Shown: piece after piece, positions 24,980 to 32,218 of the stretch | Layout: the number at the start of each line of letters is the position of its first letter | Numbering within the stretch: position 1 is the first letter of the stretch | NCBI RefSeq assembly: GCF_003095375.1 | Contig: NZ_QEHR01000012.1 | Span: 1 to 53,466 of the forward strand | Source: Marixanthomonas spongiae | GTDB taxonomy: Bacteria > Bacteroidota > Bacteroidia > Flavobacteriales > Flavobacteriaceae | DNA: 53,466 bases | Reading direction: 5' to 3' | Notes under the pieces: generated by a model | Databases searched by the model: none | Told to the model about the DNA's origin: nothing | The model's input: only the letters and a program-made list of their open reading frames with translations | Made by a program: the position numbers and the translations under genes

Positions 24980-25924
24980 TTAATTATTGACATTTAGAGA
25001 AGACATAGATTCAATTCGTACTATGGCCCCGGCATTTTCCAACATTCGTTTATATTGTTCTGCAACCTTTTTTGTTAGGCCTTCTTCCACTACGTCTAAA
25101 TTATCAACAATATCTTTAGATTGCTTTAGGCTCAAATTTGTCAAGTTTCGAACTACTTTAATCACGTTTACCTTATTTTTGCCAGACGACAGCATTTTTA
25201 CCAAGTATTTTACTTTAGGAACTTCACTGCTCATAGTATTTACTTCAGCCGTTACTCCCAATTTTTGAAGTTGATTAGCCATACTATTAGCTGCCTGTTG
25301 GTTCAGGTTTTGGGTTACGGTGCCACCGTGTTTTATGAGTATTGAAACTTTATTTTTTTCATTGGTACCTAATTGATGCAATAAAAATTTAAGAACAGCG
25401 GCCTGATTACTTTTTACTGGCTTAATATTAACTTCATACATAGAAGTTTGATTCTGACCATTATCGTTATCGTTTATATTGGCCTCTAAAGACGATGCAC
25501 TGTTATTTGTTGAGAGTACTTCTGCCCTAACGCCTAATTTTCGAAGTTCATTGGCCACGTTAGTCGCTGCCTGTTGGTTCAGGTTTTGCATCACGGTTCC
25601 GCCATTTTTAACCAGCATATTGACCTTTCCTTTTTTATCTGAACCTAAAAATCTAATTAAAAGCTTAGTAACAGCCGGTTTATTTTTAGTAACCGGTGCT
25701 ATCCTAACTTCGTATTTTGCAGTTTCAACCGCTGCAAAAGCTTCAGAGCTTTTATTATTTTCCTTTAACACCATCATCTGCTGTCCTTTGTGCGGTTTTT
25801 GCACCTTATTGGGTTGTTTGGCTTGGGTATCACTATTGGTATCATCACCGTTCCATTCTTGGGAAATAGCAAAAAACGAAGCAAATATCAGCACTACGGA
25901 AAATAATAATTTAATTTTTTTCAT
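24980..25924 (-). CDS. Secreted protein with three L7/L12-C-terminal-like modules
   Basis: 314 residues from ATG 25924; an upstream in-frame ATG would add 16 residues before the signal peptide MKKIKLLFSVVLIF...AISQ. Three modules follow a low-complexity linker: about 70-138, 162-230 and 239-307. The third (KVNVIKVVRNLTNLSLKQSK, then EEGLTKKVAEQYKRMLENAGAIVRI) matches the ribosomal protein bL12 C-terminal domain pattern (KI.VIK.VR..T.L.LKEAK, then K..AE..K..LE.AGA.V.). The first two share NGGTV.QNLN.QAA with each other and the same predicted strand/helix order. An exported bL12-like array is unusual; function unknown. Monocistronic. Confidence 0.8.
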   Translation of the reverse strand: MKKIKLLFSVVLIFASFFAISQEWNGDDTNSDTQAKQPNKVQKPHKGQQMMVLKENNKSSEAFAAVETAKYEVRIAPVTKNKPAVTKLLIRFLGSDKKGKVNMLVKNGGTVMQNLNQQAATNVANELRKLGVRAEVLSTNNSASSLEANINDNDNGQNQTSMYEVNIKPVKSNQAAVLKFLLHQLGTNEKNKVSILIKHGGTVTQNLNQQAANSMANQLQKLGVTAEVNTMSSEVPKVKYLVKMLSSGKNKVNVIKVVRNLTNLSLKQSKDIVDNLDVVEEGLTKKVAEQYKRMLENAGAIVRIESMSSLNVNN

Positions 25925-26349
25925 AATTAATATTCTTGTGTTTAAGGTCCTTAATTTAATTATAGTTAACAAGTTTGACCAAAGTTAATTAAAATTACTT
26001 TAAGCCTAATTTTACTGGTTTTAAGGAACTTAAGCTGAAACATTAATTATAATTTTGAAAAATTACATTGCATATTCATATCCATAATTACCAGTAGGTT
26101 CTTGAATTGCAGTCCAATCTTCGGATTTTCGCCTCAAAAGTTTTCCTTGAGTTTTGCTTGATCCCATATATTGATTTAACTTGAATAATGGATAAACCTT
26201 TTTTTGTTGAAAATTATATTTCCCTATCCCTAAAGGGTAATAATTTTCTCTGTTTGAACAATTGTATAGAATTTTCCCTCCCTTTTAGAATCGGGGAAAA
26301 GGAAAATTCGTCTTATGGTGTTATCCATCATTCACTTTGATTTAGTTTT
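25925..26349. other. Intergenic region with a possible gene remnant
   Basis: 425 bp between two minus-strand genes. It contains the promoter side of the L12-like gene and the orphan frame at 26063-26281; nothing else could be recognised. Confidence 0.5.
26063..26281 (-). pseudogene. Possible C-terminal remnant of a lost gene
   Basis: On the minus strand a frame stays open for about 72 codons from just after a TAA near 26284 to TAA at 26063-26065, with protein-like composition (e.g. KLLRRKSEDWTAIQEPTGNY) and no start codon except an internal ATG that would give 34 residues. It could be the tail of a deleted gene or a chance open frame. Confidence 0.25.
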
Positions 26350-27804
26350 CTAAATTTTATTTAAACTATGCCGAGCCACATTTAAAGTCTTTCCAGCCAC
26401 ATCGGTTAGCCAACTTATATGTGCCTTGGGGTTTTTGGCTAATTCGGTAACAGTATTACGGGTGGTTACGGCAAATTTGGCACCATCGGCAACCAATTGT
26501 CCCGGCTGAGCCAATCCGTTAAGTAGGTATCCATTGGCATCCAGCCCAGCCTGAAAAAGGATTTTCATGATAAAATCTGGAGTAAGTGCTTTATACGATG
26601 GATACGTCCCTTCAAATATACCTGCAATAATGGCGGCAAACTTGGGATCGTGTTTGCAACGGGAAATAAGGATGTTTAAAAAGTTCATCCATAGCGGAGT
26701 AAGGGTTTTGTTACGCCCAAACTGCACCAGTAAATTGGACAAGGAAAAATCATAGGCCAGCTCCTTTTCCAGTTGATTTTTATACCCTTCCAAAGCATCT
26801 GCCGAGCAATCGTCTTGCTGTATGCAATCAATTAAACTTTCTGCTGCCCAGCGAGCACTTAACACGGCATATTGAATACCATCGCCGCTCAAGGGATTTA
26901 TAAGTCCAGCGGCTTCACCTACCAGCATCGCACGGTCTGCCGTTATAGGGTTCCGGGAATCGTAAAAGGTAATGGGCCAGCCCTGTATTTTTTCGGTTGC
27001 TTTGCCATTGCCCAATCGTTTCCGTAAATCGGGGTTGGTGGCTATATGGTTGGCAAAACATTGCCGTACTTCTGAAGCCTCTTTCGGACAGGTTTTAAAA
27101 ATCATCGCCATCCCTACGTTGGCTCCTGTTTCCCCTTTTGGGAACAACCAATAAATCCCAGGGAAGTTTTCTTCACTAAAATAAACATCCACCCGGTTGC
27201 GTGGGCCATTGACACCTTCATAATACGACCGCAACCCCAACAATTGATACGCGGGGTCTGGCTGATAGCCGCGTAATTTTCGCCCTACCAATGATCGGCT
27301 TCCGTCTGCCCCTACAATCAGTTTTGAAATCAGCCGCCCTTCTTTCTTTCCATTTTTATAGGTCGTTACCACCTTGTTGGCATAGACCTTATAATCGATC
27401 ATCCTACAGTTTTCATAAAAGACAGCGCCCTCCTTTTTTGCTGTATCATAAATCATAGCATCCAATTCCATTCGGGGTATTATGCGTGCATGAAATGGCA
27501 GGTCATCTGGCTTTTCCAAGTTAATATGGGCTTGGTCGTTTTTCATAAACAGGCCAACCGTATCAATACTGTTTGCTTTTTTAAATGTATTGGTTTGGGT
27601 GATGCCCATGGTATGAAGTTCGCGCAATGCAACAGGGCTCACGCCATCGCCACATACCTTATCCCGGGGAAACTTTTTAGCCTCTATAACAATAGTCTTG
27701 ATGTTGGCTTTCGCCAAATGATACGCCAAGGCACTACCAGCAGGCCCTCCCCCAACGATGAGCACATCGCAATCATATTCTATTTTTTGGCGTATCTGTA
27801 CCAT
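26350..27804 (-). CDS. Geranylgeranyl-reductase-family FAD oxidoreductase
   Basis: 484 residues. The N-terminus has the dinucleotide-binding motif VLIVGGGPAGSALAYHL with an acidic strand end (VIEA), then the family motif FPRDKVCGDGVSP. ADGSRSLVGRKL and LVGEAAGLINPLSGDGIQYAV are the second and third FAD-contact motifs of the GGR/phenol-hydroxylase group. Such enzymes saturate prenyl chains of lipids, chlorophyll or quinones. It is the last gene of a seven-gene operon and begins 2 bp after the polyprenyl synthase gene, so its substrate is probably that enzyme's product or a derivative. The C-terminal 110 residues (about 375-484) go beyond the FAD domain. Confidence 0.85.
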   Translation of the reverse strand: MVQIRQKIEYDCDVLIVGGGPAGSALAYHLAKANIKTIVIEAKKFPRDKVCGDGVSPVALRELHTMGITQTNTFKKANSIDTVGLFMKNDQAHINLEKPDDLPFHARIIPRMELDAMIYDTAKKEGAVFYENCRMIDYKVYANKVVTTYKNGKKEGRLISKLIVGADGSRSLVGRKLRGYQPDPAYQLLGLRSYYEGVNGPRNRVDVYFSEENFPGIYWLFPKGETGANVGMAMIFKTCPKEASEVRQCFANHIATNPDLRKRLGNGKATEKIQGWPITFYDSRNPITADRAMLVGEAAGLINPLSGDGIQYAVLSARWAAESLIDCIQQDDCSADALEGYKNQLEKELAYDFSLSNLLVQFGRNKTLTPLWMNFLNILISRCKHDPKFAAIIAGIFEGTYPSYKALTPDFIMKILFQAGLDANGYLLNGLAQPGQLVADGAKFAVTTRNTVTELAKNPKAHISWLTDVAGKTLNVARHSLNKI

Positions 27805-27806
27805 AG

Positions 27807-28835
27807 CTAATAATCACGGTTTATCATATATAAAATAATGCTTTCCAAAAAAGCTTTGTCCTCGCTCTCTTCCAAATGTGAAAAATGCGAGTAAAACTCT
27901 TTAAGGGCCGCTCCTGCCAAATACTTGCTGGTCGTTTTTGCGTAGGTAATGGAACCGTAGTCATGCATTAATTCCAAAATTGTTTTCGCTTCAGCCAAGT
28001 TGCGGTCTAAAATGGGAATTTTTAAAAATCCTTTTATGAACCTTCGTTCAGAAGCTGAACAATGTAGGAGCAGATGAATAAGCATCAAGGTGCGTTTGCC
28101 TTCCATAATATCGCCGCCTATTTCCTTTCCGTATGCGCTTTCTTCCCCTACCAAGTTGAGCACATCATCTTGTATTTGAAAGGCCGCGCCCATAAAATAA
28201 CCCAACCTATTGAAATCGTCCGGTTTTACACTGCCCTTGCTCCCAATAAGTGCCCCAATACGTATTGGGTGGATACAGGTGTACCAGCAAGTTTTTTTAA
28301 GGATCATCCGCAGGTAGTCGGTTTCGGTGAGGTCGCAGCGGTTGTCTTTGCGCCATCCCAGTTCGAGGGCTTGCCCTTCTGCCGATTCGGTTATTAAATG
28401 CTGAATTTCCAAAAAGATACGTTGTGACAGTTTTTCTCCCAACAAATCCCGGTTGCGCCATAAAGGGGATAAACTGAGGGCATTGAACATATCGCCAACG
28501 TTTATGGCTATGGCACGGCTGGTGGCTTCGTGCATGGTCGGTTTTTTGCGCCTATAAAAACTCTCGTCTTCCACATCGTCATGGATCAAGAATGCGTTGT
28601 GCAACATCTCTAAGGCAACTGCTGAAAACTTGGCTTCTTTCAACTTTCCCCCAAATGCTTTACAACTTGCGATGCACAGCCCCGGACGGAACCCTTTGCC
28701 GCCTCGATTGGGGTAATCTGATAACAAACCATAGAGGTATTGATCGGGCTCTTTTTCAGGAATAAACGCATGGATCCCCAAGAGGGTCTCGGTGCCGTAA
28801 TCGGCCAGCTTTTGTTTCATGTGCGTGGTATCCAT
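27807..28835 (-). CDS. Polyprenyl diphosphate synthase
   Basis: 342 residues, all-helical trans-isoprenyl synthase fold. The first aspartate-rich motif is HDDVEDESFYRRKKPT (Asp86, Asp87, Asp90); the second is QIQDDVLNL, giving DDxxN rather than DDxxD. GGKGFRPGL near residue 45 corresponds to the usual GGKRxRP motif with Gly and Phe at the variable places. It condenses IPP with allylic diphosphates; chain length cannot be set with confidence. Placement between structural-protein genes and a geranylgeranyl-reductase-like gene ties it to one pathway. Confidence 0.88.
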   Translation of the reverse strand: MDTTHMKQKLADYGTETLLGIHAFIPEKEPDQYLYGLLSDYPNRGGKGFRPGLCIASCKAFGGKLKEAKFSAVALEMLHNAFLIHDDVEDESFYRRKKPTMHEATSRAIAINVGDMFNALSLSPLWRNRDLLGEKLSQRIFLEIQHLITESAEGQALELGWRKDNRCDLTETDYLRMILKKTCWYTCIHPIRIGALIGSKGSVKPDDFNRLGYFMGAAFQIQDDVLNLVGEESAYGKEIGGDIMEGKRTLMLIHLLLHCSASERRFIKGFLKIPILDRNLAEAKTILELMHDYGSITYAKTTSKYLAGAALKEFYSHFSHLEESEDKAFLESIILYMINRDY

Positions 28836-28903
28836 AACGTGTTGCTTATTGAATATTAGGTTGTTTGCATTGCCTACACCTACCCGTTAACTAGCTATAT
28901 CTT

Positions 28904-29647
28904 TTATGTTTCCAATACTTCCAAAGCGATCAACACCCGCACCAACGGGTCGTTTTTATCGGTCAATAAGGCGTTGTAACATCCCGGCTGACTGTTTTTC
29001 GGCAGGTCTAACGTGATATTCAGGTCTTTTTCTTTTTTTGGTCTGAGCGAAAAGGATTTAGGTTCTATTTTTATGGCCCTTTTATAGATTACGTGTTCGC
29101 CCGGCCCAATCAAATCGCTTTTTCTAAGTTCAATTTTTTTAGGGCTTTCCAGATGGTCTTCAAACATGCTTATTGTCAAAGTAACCGTTTCGCCCGGTTT
29201 CATTGGGGCATCGGGTTCTAATGTAATAATAGCGGGGGTGCTTTTTGAAGTTTTGGATGGTGGTTTTGTGCTCGATGCTTTGCCGTTTTTTTTTGCCTGT
29301 TCCTCTGTTTCTTTTTTAAGAGCTTCCACCACACTGTTCATTTGGCCTGTTAAGGAAGCAAAGGCGTCGATAAATAAGTCTAACACTTCATGCGAATCCC
29401 GCCGAATCCGGTTCATTAAGGCGTCGGGGTCTTCCCGGATTTCATCGACATCTATTAATTTTTTCTCAATCTTTTTGGCCGCTAAAATACCTGCGGCTAT
29501 TTCTTCTTCCAGTACGTTCACTGCGGAATTAACGATACGCTGCGCCTTGTTCACCACACGGTCTGTATCGATCCACGAGGCGTCTTCCTGTTTGCTTTGC
29601 TTACCGGAATTACTTTTTTTTCGTGGTCCTTTTTTTGACGTTCCCAT
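28904..29647 (-). CDS. Unknown cytoplasmic protein: helical N-terminus plus Ig-like domain
   Basis: 247 residues, no signal peptide or membrane helix. A basic start (GTSKKGPRKK) is followed by a long amphipathic helical part (about 25-125, VVNKAQRIVNSAVNVLEEEIAAGILAAKK and FIDAFASLTGQMNSVVEALKKE), a Lys/Ser/Thr/Pro linker (about 126-145), and a C-terminal beta module with the sequence style of NEW3/Ig-like domains: FSLRPKKEKDLNITLDLPKN, then PGCYNALLTDKNDPLVRVLIALEV. The helical part resembles phasins in size and composition only. Overlaps the upstream gene by 38 bp. Family not recognised. Confidence 0.75.
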   Translation of the reverse strand: MGTSKKGPRKKSNSGKQSKQEDASWIDTDRVVNKAQRIVNSAVNVLEEEIAAGILAAKKIEKKLIDVDEIREDPDALMNRIRRDSHEVLDLFIDAFASLTGQMNSVVEALKKETEEQAKKNGKASSTKPPSKTSKSTPAIITLEPDAPMKPGETVTLTISMFEDHLESPKKIELRKSDLIGPGEHVIYKRAIKIEPKSFSLRPKKEKDLNITLDLPKNSQPGCYNALLTDKNDPLVRVLIALEVLET

Positions 29648-30269
29648 TGGCTTGTTTTTTAACTGGTGGTGCTATGTGCAGTAGGATACGGAAGAAGGAA
29701 GGCTCAAAGCCCACTACTTCCACATCGCTACTATAGGTTGCGCTGGGGGTCTTTTTTGGAATATGAAGCTCAATGGCCACGGTATCTTTTTCGCCTGGCT
29801 CTTGAGTAAAGGATTGTGGTTTAAAAGTGGTTTTAATATTGATTTCGTTAGCAGGTTCCGCAGTATCCGTAAAAGGGGAATTGACCAGTTCGCAACTCGC
29901 GGTTTCTGTTTTGGTGTTTTCCAGAACAAACTGCAAGCTAAGCCGTTCTCCGGCTTTGGCGGTTTCTTCCAGTACAAATGCAGGTTGTGTCTCGGTATGA
30001 CCAGAAGGTTCTTCTTTATCGATCATTTCATTGGCGAATGAAAAGCCCATTTCCAACGCCTTATTGTAGTATTCTAAATTCATTTTGGCAAACTCGGTAA
30101 AGGCTTTGCTGTACGCTTCGGGCTTGAAAACAAATGGGCTTTTGCCTGTTTTGGGCTTTTGGCTCATCTCGCTCCATATCTTAAACCCCTGACCCATAAA
30201 TTTTTTATTGAGCGCAACGGTTTTTCTGAAAAGTTCTTCAAACGGTATTTGGTCGTTGTTTGATGCCAT
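29610..30269 (-). CDS. Unknown phasin-like protein with Ig-like domain
   Basis: 219 residues from ATG 30269; a longer in-frame start at 30314 would run into the previous gene and lacks support. Helical first half: FEELFRKTVALNKKFMGQGFKIWSEM and FTEFAKMNLEYYNKALEMGFSFANEMI, aromatic-rich amphipathic helices of the kind seen in granule-coating phasins and PhaE-like proteins (similarity by eye only). The second half is an Ig-like module (FKPQSFTQEPGEKDTVAIELHIPKK, then SFFRILLHI), and the end is strongly basic (VKKRTTKKK). No export signal. Paralogous in plan to its neighbours. Confidence 0.75.
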   Translation of the reverse strand: MASNNDQIPFEELFRKTVALNKKFMGQGFKIWSEMSQKPKTGKSPFVFKPEAYSKAFTEFAKMNLEYYNKALEMGFSFANEMIDKEEPSGHTETQPAFVLEETAKAGERLSLQFVLENTKTETASCELVNSPFTDTAEPANEINIKTTFKPQSFTQEPGEKDTVAIELHIPKKTPSATYSSDVEVVGFEPSFFRILLHIAPPVKKQANGNVKKRTTKKK

Positions 30270-30279
30270 GGGCTTGGTG

Positions 30280-30939
30280 TTATCGGTCTTGGTCTTGGTC
30301 ACGGATGGGCTCACAATAATAATGCGATTTCCAGCTTTGCCATCTTAGCTTGTATTTTTTCTCCTCGTGGGGCGTTACCGTAATGCCGGGATGATCGGCG
30401 ATTTCCACGGTAAGGCAGATGTTTTGATTGTATTCTTTTTCTCGCAGTACGATTTCCGAAGTATAGGTGCCATTTTCCAATTTTCCCGTATCTAAATGCA
30501 ACAACACCCTTTCTTTACCAAAGGGAGCCAATTGGACCGCGTTTTTATTTAAATTAAGTTGCACGCCGGCATCATTCCCATCTTGATCGATCAAAGGCCG
30601 GGCTCCTACCCTATATTTTTTAGGTGCATTGCAATCATTTTTCACATAAAATGGGATGATAATTCGCTCTCCCTTCATAGCTGTTCTATGCATGCTGGTC
30701 AAGCAATGCGGCGGACATTCTTCTTGGGGTGGACAACAATCCCCAGTATTGAACATGGTTTTTAAAGGCTGAAGGACGTTTTTGCCCAACTGTCCGGCAT
30801 TTTTACTGAACTGGTTGCTGTTTCCCGTCATATTGTCCAGCATGGTACCATAGAATTCCATGGACATATTGGTAAGTCCCTGAAGGTTTTTCATGACCGA
30901 ATCGCTGAACACATTGGACTGTAAAGGTTTATTTTCCAT
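30280..30939 (-). CDS. Unknown phasin-like protein with Cys cluster and Ig-like domain
   Basis: 219 residues from ATG 30939 (MENKPLQ); the longer frame start at 31002 overlaps the previous gene and is less likely. Helical N-terminus MKNLQGLTNMSMEFYGTMLDN...NVLQPLKTMFN resembles phasins in style. A cysteine cluster follows (DCCPPQEECPPHC, about residues 67-79), then an Ig-like domain (YVKNDCNAPKKYRVG; VQLAPFGKERVLLHLDTGKLENGTYTSEIVL). Without a signal peptide the cysteines are more likely metal-binding than disulfide-forming. Sits 10 bp from the next gene of the operon. Confidence 0.75.
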   Translation of the reverse strand: MENKPLQSNVFSDSVMKNLQGLTNMSMEFYGTMLDNMTGNSNQFSKNAGQLGKNVLQPLKTMFNTGDCCPPQEECPPHCLTSMHRTAMKGERIIIPFYVKNDCNAPKKYRVGARPLIDQDGNDAGVQLNLNKNAVQLAPFGKERVLLHLDTGKLENGTYTSEIVLREKEYNQNICLTVEIADHPGITVTPHEEKKYKLRWQSWKSHYYCEPIRDQDQDR

Positions 30940-30950
30940 TTTTTCTCGTT

Positions 30951-31727
30951 TTATGGGTTTGTGGTATGTGACTTGAACGAACATGACACTTGCTCCTCCC
31001 AAAACCGGATGGTAAGGTCGTAATCGTTTTCTGCCTTGGCGTTCTCGGGGATGGTGATTTCAATGTTCACCAACATGCTCTTTCCAGGTTCTAAAACCTG
31101 CCCGGCCTCTTTTACTTTAGAGTTGGCCCAATTAGGCATGTTTTCTTTTAGGTTTCGGGTTACGTGGTCCATGGTATCGGTAAAGCCTTCCTCTTTATCG
31201 TACCGGAAACCATAGCCAAAAGCCCGGCACAGCAAGTCCATATCCAATGGGGCGACGTGGGTCACCTTGGGTATTTCAAACGGCATATTGCCGGTGTTGA
31301 CCACTGTAAATGTTGCGGTGTGCTTTGTTTCGGGGGCTGTTCCTTGAAAGGTAAATTCGGTGGGGTTGATCGCTACCGAAATAGTAGGCTGCACTACCAT
31401 GGTCACCTTGCGTTTTTTGCCACCGATGTCTATTTGGTTTTCGTAGGTGCCCGGACGTGTGTTAGGGTCTATGGAAAGCATAAGGTGTTCCATACGTTTT
31501 TCGCCGGGTCGCAACTTGCTGTTGATATAAAGCGGAACAGTGTTGAGGCTTTCGGTCTTTTTGCTTTTTGTGGCTTTAAGGTCAAGGAATTTTATACGGG
31601 TCTTGCTCTCGTTTTTATTGTGCAGTTCAATACTGCCCATTAAGTTGCCGGGAGGGCCGTTCAAGATGATTTCCTCCTCGCCAACAGCGATGTTCTTCAA
31701 CTGGGAATCGGGCACTTTTTTTAACAT
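30951..31727 (-). CDS. Unknown cytoplasmic protein with two Ig-like modules
   Basis: 258 residues, no export signal. Module 1 (about 15-110) reads IILNGPPGNLMGSIELHNKN, LRPGEKRMEHLMLSIDPNTRPGTYENQIDIGGKKRKVTMVV. Module 2 (about 112-255) reads ISVAINPTEFTFQG, TFTVVNTGNMPFEIPKV and, after an inserted helical stretch, LEPGKSMLVNIEITIPENAKAENDYDLTIRFWEE. Both carry the pattern of bacterial Ig-like/NEW3 domains (a strand, PG-K/E-, a strand, P-G-Y). Unlike its neighbours it lacks a phasin-like N-terminal helix part. Second gene of the operon, 17 bp after the first. Confidence 0.75.
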   Translation of the reverse strand: MLKKVPDSQLKNIAVGEEEIILNGPPGNLMGSIELHNKNESKTRIKFLDLKATKSKKTESLNTVPLYINSKLRPGEKRMEHLMLSIDPNTRPGTYENQIDIGGKKRKVTMVVQPTISVAINPTEFTFQGTAPETKHTATFTVVNTGNMPFEIPKVTHVAPLDMDLLCRAFGYGFRYDKEEGFTDTMDHVTRNLKENMPNWANSKVKEAGQVLEPGKSMLVNIEITIPENAKAENDYDLTIRFWEEQVSCSFKSHTTNP

Positions 31728-31744
31728 AACGCAACAGATTTTAA

Positions 31745-32218
31745 TTATCCTTGGGGCTCATTGGAATCCCTTTCGGGGAAAGGTCGGGTATCGGGCTTGC
31801 AGCATGGGTCTTCTTCGCAACGTTCAGCGGCGTTGGGCACGTAGGGTTCGGTGATGATCTGGCTTTCGCCGCCTACGCAGATGCTGAAAAACTCTACGCC
31901 CAACATTTTAAAGCACACATTGGAATAATTGGGAATGCGCACCCGTTGTTTCATCAAGTCCTTGATGTCTTTTAAGGTAAAGCGCGGCAGGTTCATAAGT
32001 TCCAGCTTGTTGTCTGTGGCTACGGGTTCGTTGGTATCTCCGGTTAGTTTCAAGGTGTTTGTGGTGGATAGGCTTCCGCTTATCTTGTTTTCCACACTGC
32101 CGGAAAGTTCGGTCGCAATCTTGCCCGAATGTTTGGCGTCCAGATCGGCATCTATATCAAACGGGCGTATCGGGTTGAGATTGTGCGTGTAAGTGGTTGG
32201 AATTTTTGGAACGCTCAT
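31745..32218 (-). CDS. Unknown first protein of the isoprenoid operon
   Basis: 157 residues, no signal peptide or clear membrane segment. The first 75 residues are polar and rich in Ser/Thr/Asp (HSGKIATELSGSVENKISGSLSTTNTLKLTG). A more ordered part follows (FTLKDIKDLMKQRVRIPNYSNVCFKMLGVEFFSICVGGESQIITEPYVP), and the C-terminus has a cysteine cluster CEEDPCC and a Pro/Arg-rich tail. Family not recognised. It opens the seven-gene operon that ends with the prenyl synthase and reductase; the 180 bp before it should hold the promoter. Confidence 0.7.
   Translation of the reverse strand: MSVPKIPTTYTHNLNPIRPFDIDADLDAKHSGKIATELSGSVENKISGSLSTTNTLKLTGDTNEPVATDNKLELMNLPRFTLKDIKDLMKQRVRIPNYSNVCFKMLGVEFFSICVGGESQIITEPYVPNAAERCEEDPCCKPDTRPFPERDSNEPQG

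What the first reader, a model, noticed from the sequence alone, without database searches (positions are those of the whole stretch)
26350..32218. Isoprenoid enzymes in one operon with five unknown, cytoplasmic Ig-like/phasin-like proteins
Seven minus-strand genes run with gaps or overlaps of a few bases (one 68-bp gap). Two are recognisable: a trans-polyprenyl synthase and a geranylgeranyl-reductase-like flavoprotein. The other five lack export signals. Three combine an amphipathic, phasin-like helical N-terminus with a C-terminal Ig-like beta module, one is two such modules, and two have Cys clusters (CCPPQEECPPHC, CEEDPCC). Ig-like modules are usually extracytoplasmic, so a family of cytoplasmic ones beside prenyl-lipid enzymes is odd. 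A reasonable model is a prenyl-lipid body or membrane domain whose surface is organised by these proteins. I know of no described system of this layout.
Basis: partly seen in the sequence, partly recalled or inferred. Interest (0 to 1): 0.82.

Follow-up and report, generated by a model that had tools for sequence, protein, structure and literature searches.

The report
Prenyl-synthase operon with cytosolic scaffold proteins
A rare, strictly conserved set of seven bacterial genes pairs two enzymes that build and reduce isoprenoid chains with five uncharacterised proteins that probably hold them together inside the cell; pieces of that scaffold turn up beside the same kind of enzyme in unrelated bacteria, once next to a protein nano-shell.

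Summary
Seven minus-strand genes (26350-32218) form one tight operon. All 9 of 9 loci found (window plus 8: Flavobacteriaceae, Chitinophagaceae, two MAGs of unstated family) carry the same seven genes in the same order; flanks mostly differ. The cassette is rare (P7 profile: 1 of 395 phylum genomes), possibly acquired horizontally (GC 45.0% against 38.3%), and every gene is under purifying selection. The five unknown proteins lack signal-like segments. New here: the prenyl synthase belongs to a distinctive group (HN[AG]F..HDD and KKT[CS][WA]Y) whose members outside the cassette sit beside a stand-alone helical half of P3 (Kitasatospora, one other Bacteroidota genome) or a stand-alone Ig half (two Ruegeria plasmids, near an encapsulin shell gene). 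P3 looks like the fusion of the two. 0 of 10 control prenyl-synthase loci had a P3-P7 hit. Best reading: a dedicated scaffold or coat for making and reducing a roughly C20 prenyl lipid in the cytosol. The conserved unit is shown; body, product and coat are inferred. I found no description of it in the papers searched.

The parts
31745..32218 (-). P7, first gene: 157 aa, no known family; Gly-rich N-terminal region, then LPRFTLKDIKDLMK..RVRIPNYSNVC..GGESQIITEPYVPN and C-terminal C-x4-CC
   Evidence: 60 columns invariant in 9 homologues; all 5 Cys invariant in 9 of 9; AF2 model failed, pLDDT 43.8; no Pfam/NCBIfam hit
30951..31727 (-). P6: 258 aa, probably two Ig-like modules (NEW3/NPCBM_assoc-like)
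   Evidence: PF10633 25.9 bits, cut-off 24.4; hhalign to P4 84.7%; no model made
30280..30939 (-). P5: 219 aa, N-terminal helical segment, Cys cluster CCPPQEECPPHC, PapD/ASH-type Ig module, C-terminal W..W.SH.YC
   Evidence: AF2 residues 81-180 at block-mean pLDDT 81-90; fold matches; 6 invariant Cys in 9 of 9
29610..30269 (-). P4: 219 aa, two amphipathic segments, then Ig-like module; its single Cys is invariant in 9 of 9
   Evidence: Ig module related to P3, hhalign 98.1% E 8e-14
28904..29647 (-). P3: 247 aa, conserved helical domain (VLEEEIAAGILAAKKIEKK..RIRRD.HE..D.F.DA) fused to an Ig-like module
   Evidence: helical half alone beside PPS in L026 and L017, Ig half alone beside PPS in L016 and L033
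27807..28835 (-). PPS: trans-polyprenyl diphosphate synthase of a distinct group (HNAF..HDD; KKTCWY)
   Evidence: PF00348 189 bits; tree and motifs; one of three PPS genes of the genome
26350..27804 (-). GGR: geranylgeranyl-reductase-superfamily flavoprotein with a C-terminal extension conserved among the cassettes
   Evidence: TIGR02032 206 bits over cut-off 158.8; only over-cut-off member in the genome; alignment of 9

Best explanation
A self-contained, probably mobile seven-gene cassette makes and handles a reduced prenyl chain in the cytosol. (1) PPS elongates to about C20; the residues before the first Asp-rich motif (Ala at -5, Phe at -4) suggest GGPP, by recall of chicken FPPS mutants. 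(2) GGR reduces double bonds of this chain or of a lipid built from it. (3) P3-P6 are scaffold proteins: amphipathic helices (P3, P4, P5) bind the hydrophobic product or a lipid surface and the prenyl synthase, and Ig-like modules (P3, P4, P5, probably two in P6) join into an outer protein layer, so the intermediates stay in a small coated body or membrane patch. (4) P7 and the Cys cluster of P5 act as an anchoring or metal-bound assembly site. SHOWN: one conserved genetic unit, the enzyme families, the Ig fold of P5, lack of signal segments, relatedness of P3 and P4 Ig modules, and recurrent pairing of this PPS group with the helical or Ig half of P3. INFERRED: chain length, what GGR reduces, physical contact, coat or body formation, roles of P7 and Cys.
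For: 9 of 9 loci keep all seven genes in order, flanks mostly unrelated; dN/dS 0-0.28 for every gene in two pairs. P3 directly precedes PPS in the cassette, and its helical half alone directly precedes PPS in Kitasatospora (4-bp overlap) and G094 (54-bp gap) (profile E 2e-7 and 3e-13). The Ig half alone lies beside PPS in two Ruegeria plasmids (E 9e-13 and 4e-11), four genes from an encapsulin shell gene. A helix+Ig protein follows PPS in G164 (hhalign to P4 E 1e-5). 0 of 10 control PPS loci have any P3-P7 hit. Amphipathic segments. P5 fold.
Against: No known coat, phasin or scaffold family is matched. There is no contact, assembly or lipid evidence. No cyclase, phosphatase or prenyl acceptor enzyme is recognisable in the cassette, so the end product is unknown. 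Ig profiles can match generic Ig domains: P3's hits a secreted protein of G269 at 22 bits, so the 39-45-bit Ruegeria hits show relatedness less firmly than the helix hits do. The G164 protein matched the P4 profile only, not P3, and no profile. Kitasatospora's hhalign probability is only 64%. The 15-row PPS group has support 92/98, under the tree tool's 95 mark, and the tool warned of long branches. P7 has no model. The two Ruegeria loci are near-copies. G575 shows no accessory gene, but its contig ends beside PPS. The 9 cassettes were found through P5, P6 or P7, so their co-occurrence with each other is partly selected for.
Confidence: 0.5

Rival explanations
1. A terpenoid natural-product cluster: PPS and GGR make a reduced diterpenoid precursor, and P3-P7 are product-specific enzymes, carriers or chaperones rather than a scaffold.
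For: Other PPS-group loci look like small biosynthetic clusters: FAD amine oxidase and DUF3237 in Ruegeria; radical SAM and a ferritin-like/FAD/Rieske protein in G164; a methyltransferase-like ORF (by eye) in G575.
Against: No terpene cyclase or tailoring enzyme was recognised in the cassette; P3-P6 carry Ig-like and helical regions without recognisable enzyme signatures.
Confidence: 0.22
2. A module that feeds archaeal-type ether lipids: GGPP goes to the genome's GGGP synthase and GGR saturates the chains, making a mixed membrane; P3-P7 organise this membrane.
For: The genome has a GGGPS-family gene (PF01884, 125.7 bits, cut-off 23.9; 238-aa ORF; the family match runs over one stop codon, which I take for the gene's end). 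FCB bacteria (Ca. Cloacimonetes) encode GGGP and DGGGP synthases, polyprenyl synthases and GG reductases (PMC7852524, passages).
Against: GGGPS lies on another contig and was not searched for in the other cassette hosts; DGGGP synthase was not tested; GGR is far below the DGGGPL-reductase cut-off (102.2 of 580 bits).
Confidence: 0.12
3. Quinone side-chain elongation and saturation (MenJ-like) with accessory proteins.
For: GGR scores 124.9 bits with the MenJ model.
Against: MenJ cut-off is 700 bits; the genome has two other PPS genes; the cassette is rare while menaquinone is general (recall).
Confidence: 0.06
4. Protein prenylation: the prenyl diphosphate is attached to the invariant cysteines of P4, P5, P6 or P7.
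For: Invariant Cys in P4 (1), P6 (1), P5 (6) and P7 (5) in 9 of 9 loci, P4 having only that one.
Against: No protein prenyltransferase was recognised in the cassette; the CxxxxxxCxxxC spacing suits metal binding equally well.
Confidence: 0.06

Closest known systems
Family 2B encapsulins with polyprenyl transferase cargo (PMC8346489, passages read; NF041169)
   Same: A polyprenyl synthase handled by dedicated co-encoded proteins; window PPS scores 151 bits with the cargo model; one PPS-group locus (Ruegeria) does sit near an encapsulin shell gene, of family 1 type.
   Different: Score far below the cut-off of 450; no shell family among the Pfam hits of the cassette proteins; Ig-like and helical proteins instead. 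Encapsulin-associated PTs are described there with a disordered 50-100-residue N-terminus; here the PF00348 match starts at residue 32.
Polyhydroxyalkanoate granules with phasins (recalled)
   Same: Small proteins with amphipathic helices encoded beside lipid-polymer enzymes.
   Different: No phasin Pfam hit, no PHA synthase in the operon, Ig modules not known from phasins (recall).
Archaeal-type lipid pathway of FCB bacteria (PMC7852524, passages)
   Same: Polyprenyl synthase plus GG reductase in relatives of Bacteroidota.
   Different: GGGPS and DGGGPS are not in the cassette; the passages I read mention no Ig-like or helical partner proteins.
PapD / ASH / MSP-type Ig domains (CEP192, VAP-A, OCRL, HYDIN)
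   Different: 7-18% sequence identity over the 50 listed rows, bacterial; joined to a helical segment and a Cys cluster; function not transferable.

Membership tests
Encapsulin family 2 polyprenyl transferase cargo (NF041169) | model score at or above curated cut-off (450 bits) | tested here: not met
   151 bits
Encapsulin system | HK97-fold shell gene in the operon | tested here: not met
   No shell family in the Pfam lists (E up to 1) of the 7 cassette proteins and 2 neighbours; the rest of the genome was not searched. Present near the PPS of Ruegeria L016 (NF041155 100.3 bits, cut-off 100; PF04454 90.7 bits).
Geranylgeranyl reductase superfamily (TIGR02032) | model score over cut-off (158.8) | tested here: met
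   206 bits
MenJ menaquinone reductase (NF045655) | score over 700 bits | tested here: not met
   124.9 bits
Archaeal DGGGPL reductase (NF041080) | score over 580 bits | tested here: not met
   102.2 bits
Trans-polyprenyl synthase (PF00348) | score over cut-off and first Asp-rich motif | tested here: met
   189 bits, cut-off 27; motif listed
GGPP synthase (C20 product) | product chain length | not testable with these tools
   Ala/Gly at -5 and Phe at -4 in all 15 group rows; fits neither type I (bulky -5) nor type II (small at both) as described in PMC9385802 (passages)
Phasins | match to a phasin family | tested here: not met
   no phasin Pfam family listed at E 1 for window P3, P4, P5
PapD/ASH/MSP Ig fold (P5) | fold match over the domain | tested here: met
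Secreted Ig proteins | N-terminal signal segment | tested here: not met
   hydropathy test only

The most novel reading that the evidence does not exclude
A previously undescribed class of bacterial prenyl-lipid compartment, found in at least three phyla: a group of polyprenyl synthases is organised by its own helical and Ig-like coat proteins (P3 type), with an encapsulin shell in one branch and a shell-less coat of four Ig-like proteins plus P7 in the Bacteroidota branch, holding a reduced C20 lipid.
Probability: 0.33. Interest if true: 0.87.

Novelty: categorically new. Interest (0 to 1): 0.72.

Why it matters
If right, bacteria have a dedicated way to hold isoprenoid intermediates on a protein scaffold without a virus-derived shell, with natural variants (helix alone, Ig alone, fused, with a shell) that let the parts be tested separately. 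It also gives a sequence signature (HN[AG]F..HDD plus KKT[CS][WA]Y) that finds such clusters, and five protein families to characterise.

Tried and rejected
Export: rejected by hydropathy. Chance ORFs: rejected by 9 of 9 conservation and dN/dS. MenJ, ChlP/BchP and archaeal reductase membership: scores far below cut-offs. Phasin membership: no Pfam hit. P7 structure: AF2 pLDDT 43.8, nothing learned; PDB sequence search with the P7 profile gave only E 0.6 and worse. PDB profile searches with P3 and P6 gave a weak GH123-type match (E 0.008) and chance-like hits. Viral contigs: none for P6 or P3. Plasmids: none for P6 or P3; GGR only distant hits, 15 of 141 records listed; nothing further for the Kitasatospora helix protein or the Ruegeria Ig protein beyond the two Ruegeria. 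Promoter and terminator scan: no more than shuffles, and Bacteroidota promoters are not of the type scanned (recall). The LytTR gene upstream was considered as a regulator; among flanks within 6 kb only a distant LytTR on the other side in L006 resembles it (28%). G269 hit of the P3 profile: a secreted 580-aa protein, GH123-like only in that GH123 structures also match. The G164 protein did not match P3; the P7 profile did not match the G094 protein. G575 could not be assessed.
Full report
OBSERVATION. Names used here, in transcription order: P7 (31745-32218), P6 (30951-31727), P5 (30280-30939), P4 (29610-30269), P3 (28904-29647), PPS (27807-28835), GGR (26350-27804). Gaps are 17, 11, 10, -38, 68 and 2 bp. 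PPS is a polyprenyl synthase (PF00348, 189 bits), one of three in the genome. GGR is over the TIGR02032 cut-off (206 bits, cut-off 158.8) and is the only gene of the genome that is.

CONSERVATION. P6 was found in 2 of 149 related genomes, the window's own and G319; none of the 6 same-genus genomes examined has it, one of these being only 55% complete. All 9 of 9 loci (window, L006, L008-L014) carry the seven genes in the same order. Named hosts are Aequorivita vitellina, Arcticiflavibacter luteus, Terrimonas ginsenosidimutans and a Chitinophagaceae strain; the rest are MAGs, uncultured or unnamed. Within 6 kb, flanking ORFs of 110 aa or more match between loci only on the upstream side of the close pair L006/L011, in one LytTR pair (window/L006, opposite sides), in one homologous pair at different distances upstream (L010/L013, 35%), and in one 86-residue match (L008/window). 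Identities of window to L006 range from 40% (P6) to 68% (PPS); P7 at 64% is more conserved than GGR at 54%. dN/dS is 0 to 0.17 for L006/L011 and 0.07 to 0.28 for L006/L012. GC is 45.0% in the cassette against 38.3% in the rest of the window; equal-sized windows range from 32.6 to 45.5%. Rarity: P6 sequence 1 of 296 phylum genomes, P7 profile 1 of 395, P3 profile 3 of 296, P5 profile 1 of 282; P4 was not searched outside the own genome. These samples come from one phylum and overlap.

BEYOND THE CASSETTE. A tblastn of PPS against plasmids gave two Ruegeria and one Kitasatospora protein at 45-49% identity, then Collinsella at 37% and the rest at 33% or less among the 30 rows listed of 240. Searches of 296, 178 and 98 genomes at E 1e-55 to 1e-60 added G094, G164 and G575. 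These six and the nine cassette PPS form one group of 15 in a 25-row tree; support is 92/98, under the tool's 95 mark, and the tool warned of long branches. All 15 have HN[AG]F before the first Asp-rich motif and KKT[CS][WA]Y later; none of the other 10 rows has either. Their neighbours: Kitasatospora, a 139-aa protein overlapping the PPS start by 4 bp that matches the P3 helix profile (E 2e-7; hhalign 64%); G094, a 156-aa protein 54 bp upstream (E 3e-13; hhalign 97%); two Ruegeria plasmids, a 156-aa protein on the other strand matching the P3 Ig profile (E 9e-13 and 4e-11; hhalign 97%), with an encapsulin shell gene, DUF3237 and an FAD oxidase upstream of PPS. G164 has a 199-aa protein overlapping PPS that only hhalign links to P4 (82%, E 1e-5); the P3 comparison failed. 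G575's contig ends beside PPS. So of six PPS-group loci found through PPS, four have a significant P3-type neighbour, one a weak one, one cannot be judged; the two Ruegeria loci are near-copies. Of 10 control PPS loci (two with only about 1.4 kb flanks) 0 have any P3-P7 hit; an eleventh (L035) was fetched and left out. P3 thus looks like the fusion of two proteins that occur singly beside the same enzyme group elsewhere, which is the best evidence that it acts on or with PPS. Caution: the P3 Ig profile also hits a secreted protein of G269 at 22 bits, so the Ig link alone is softer than the helix link.

MECHANISM. Shown: genetic unit, enzyme families, Ig fold in P5, lack of signal segments, recurrent PPS-P3 linkage. 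Inferred: PPS makes about C20 (A/G at -5, F at -4; by recall of chicken FPPS mutants; it fits neither GGPPS type described in PMC9385802, passages read); GGR reduces the chain; P3-P6 form a scaffold or coat; P7 and the Cys cluster hold the assembly or bind metal. The genome has a GGGPS-family gene on another contig, so a fate in ether lipids is possible; FCB bacteria with such pathways are described (PMC7852524, passages).

KNOWN SYSTEMS. Encapsulin family 2B with polyprenyl transferase cargo is the nearest idea (PMC8346489, passages), but the PPS fails the cargo model (151 of 450 bits) and no shell family is among the Pfam hits of the cassette proteins. Ten paper searches were made. Phasin + geranylgeranyl reductase + polyprenyl synthetase, encapsulin + polyprenyl + geranylgeranyl, and geranylgeranyl + phasin-like returned nothing. 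Encapsulin + polyprenyl transferase returned two papers; phasin + geranylgeranyl + granule five, unrelated by title; the others showed no such operon in the titles and abstract starts listed, though searches listed only 8 of 45 and 8 of 54. Passages were read in four papers, no paper in full. Only open-licence PMC papers were searched, so "undescribed" is limited to that.

Noticed in passing
L016:6091-11463 and L033 (Ruegeria plasmids): Encapsulin family-1-like shell gene, DUF3237, FAD oxidase, PPS-group synthase and a free Ig-like protein without signal segment in one cluster, with an adenylate/guanylate cyclase upstream: a possible isoprenoid encapsulin system.
   Followed up: partly
L027:6974-16319 (G164): PPS-group synthase beside a probable helix+Ig protein, three unknown proteins, a radical SAM protein and a 1080-aa protein joining ferritin-like, FAD amine-oxidase and Rieske domains.
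   Followed up: partly
window 24980-25972: Protein with a signal-like start and a ribosomal L7/L12 C-terminal-type domain (PF00542, 70 bits), next to but not part of the cassette.
   Followed up: no
window 26350-32218: Cassette GC 45.0% against 38.3% for the rest of the window, suggesting horizontal transfer; no transposase or integrase was looked for.
   Followed up: partly
L042:1504-2220 (own genome, contig C1): GGGP synthase (PcrB family) gene of 238 aa on another contig, a possible user of GGPP.
   Followed up: partly
L006:113-3206: PLP-dependent decarboxylase-like and AMP-ligase-like ORFs (by eye) downstream of the L006 cassette; not shared with the other loci.
   Followed up: no
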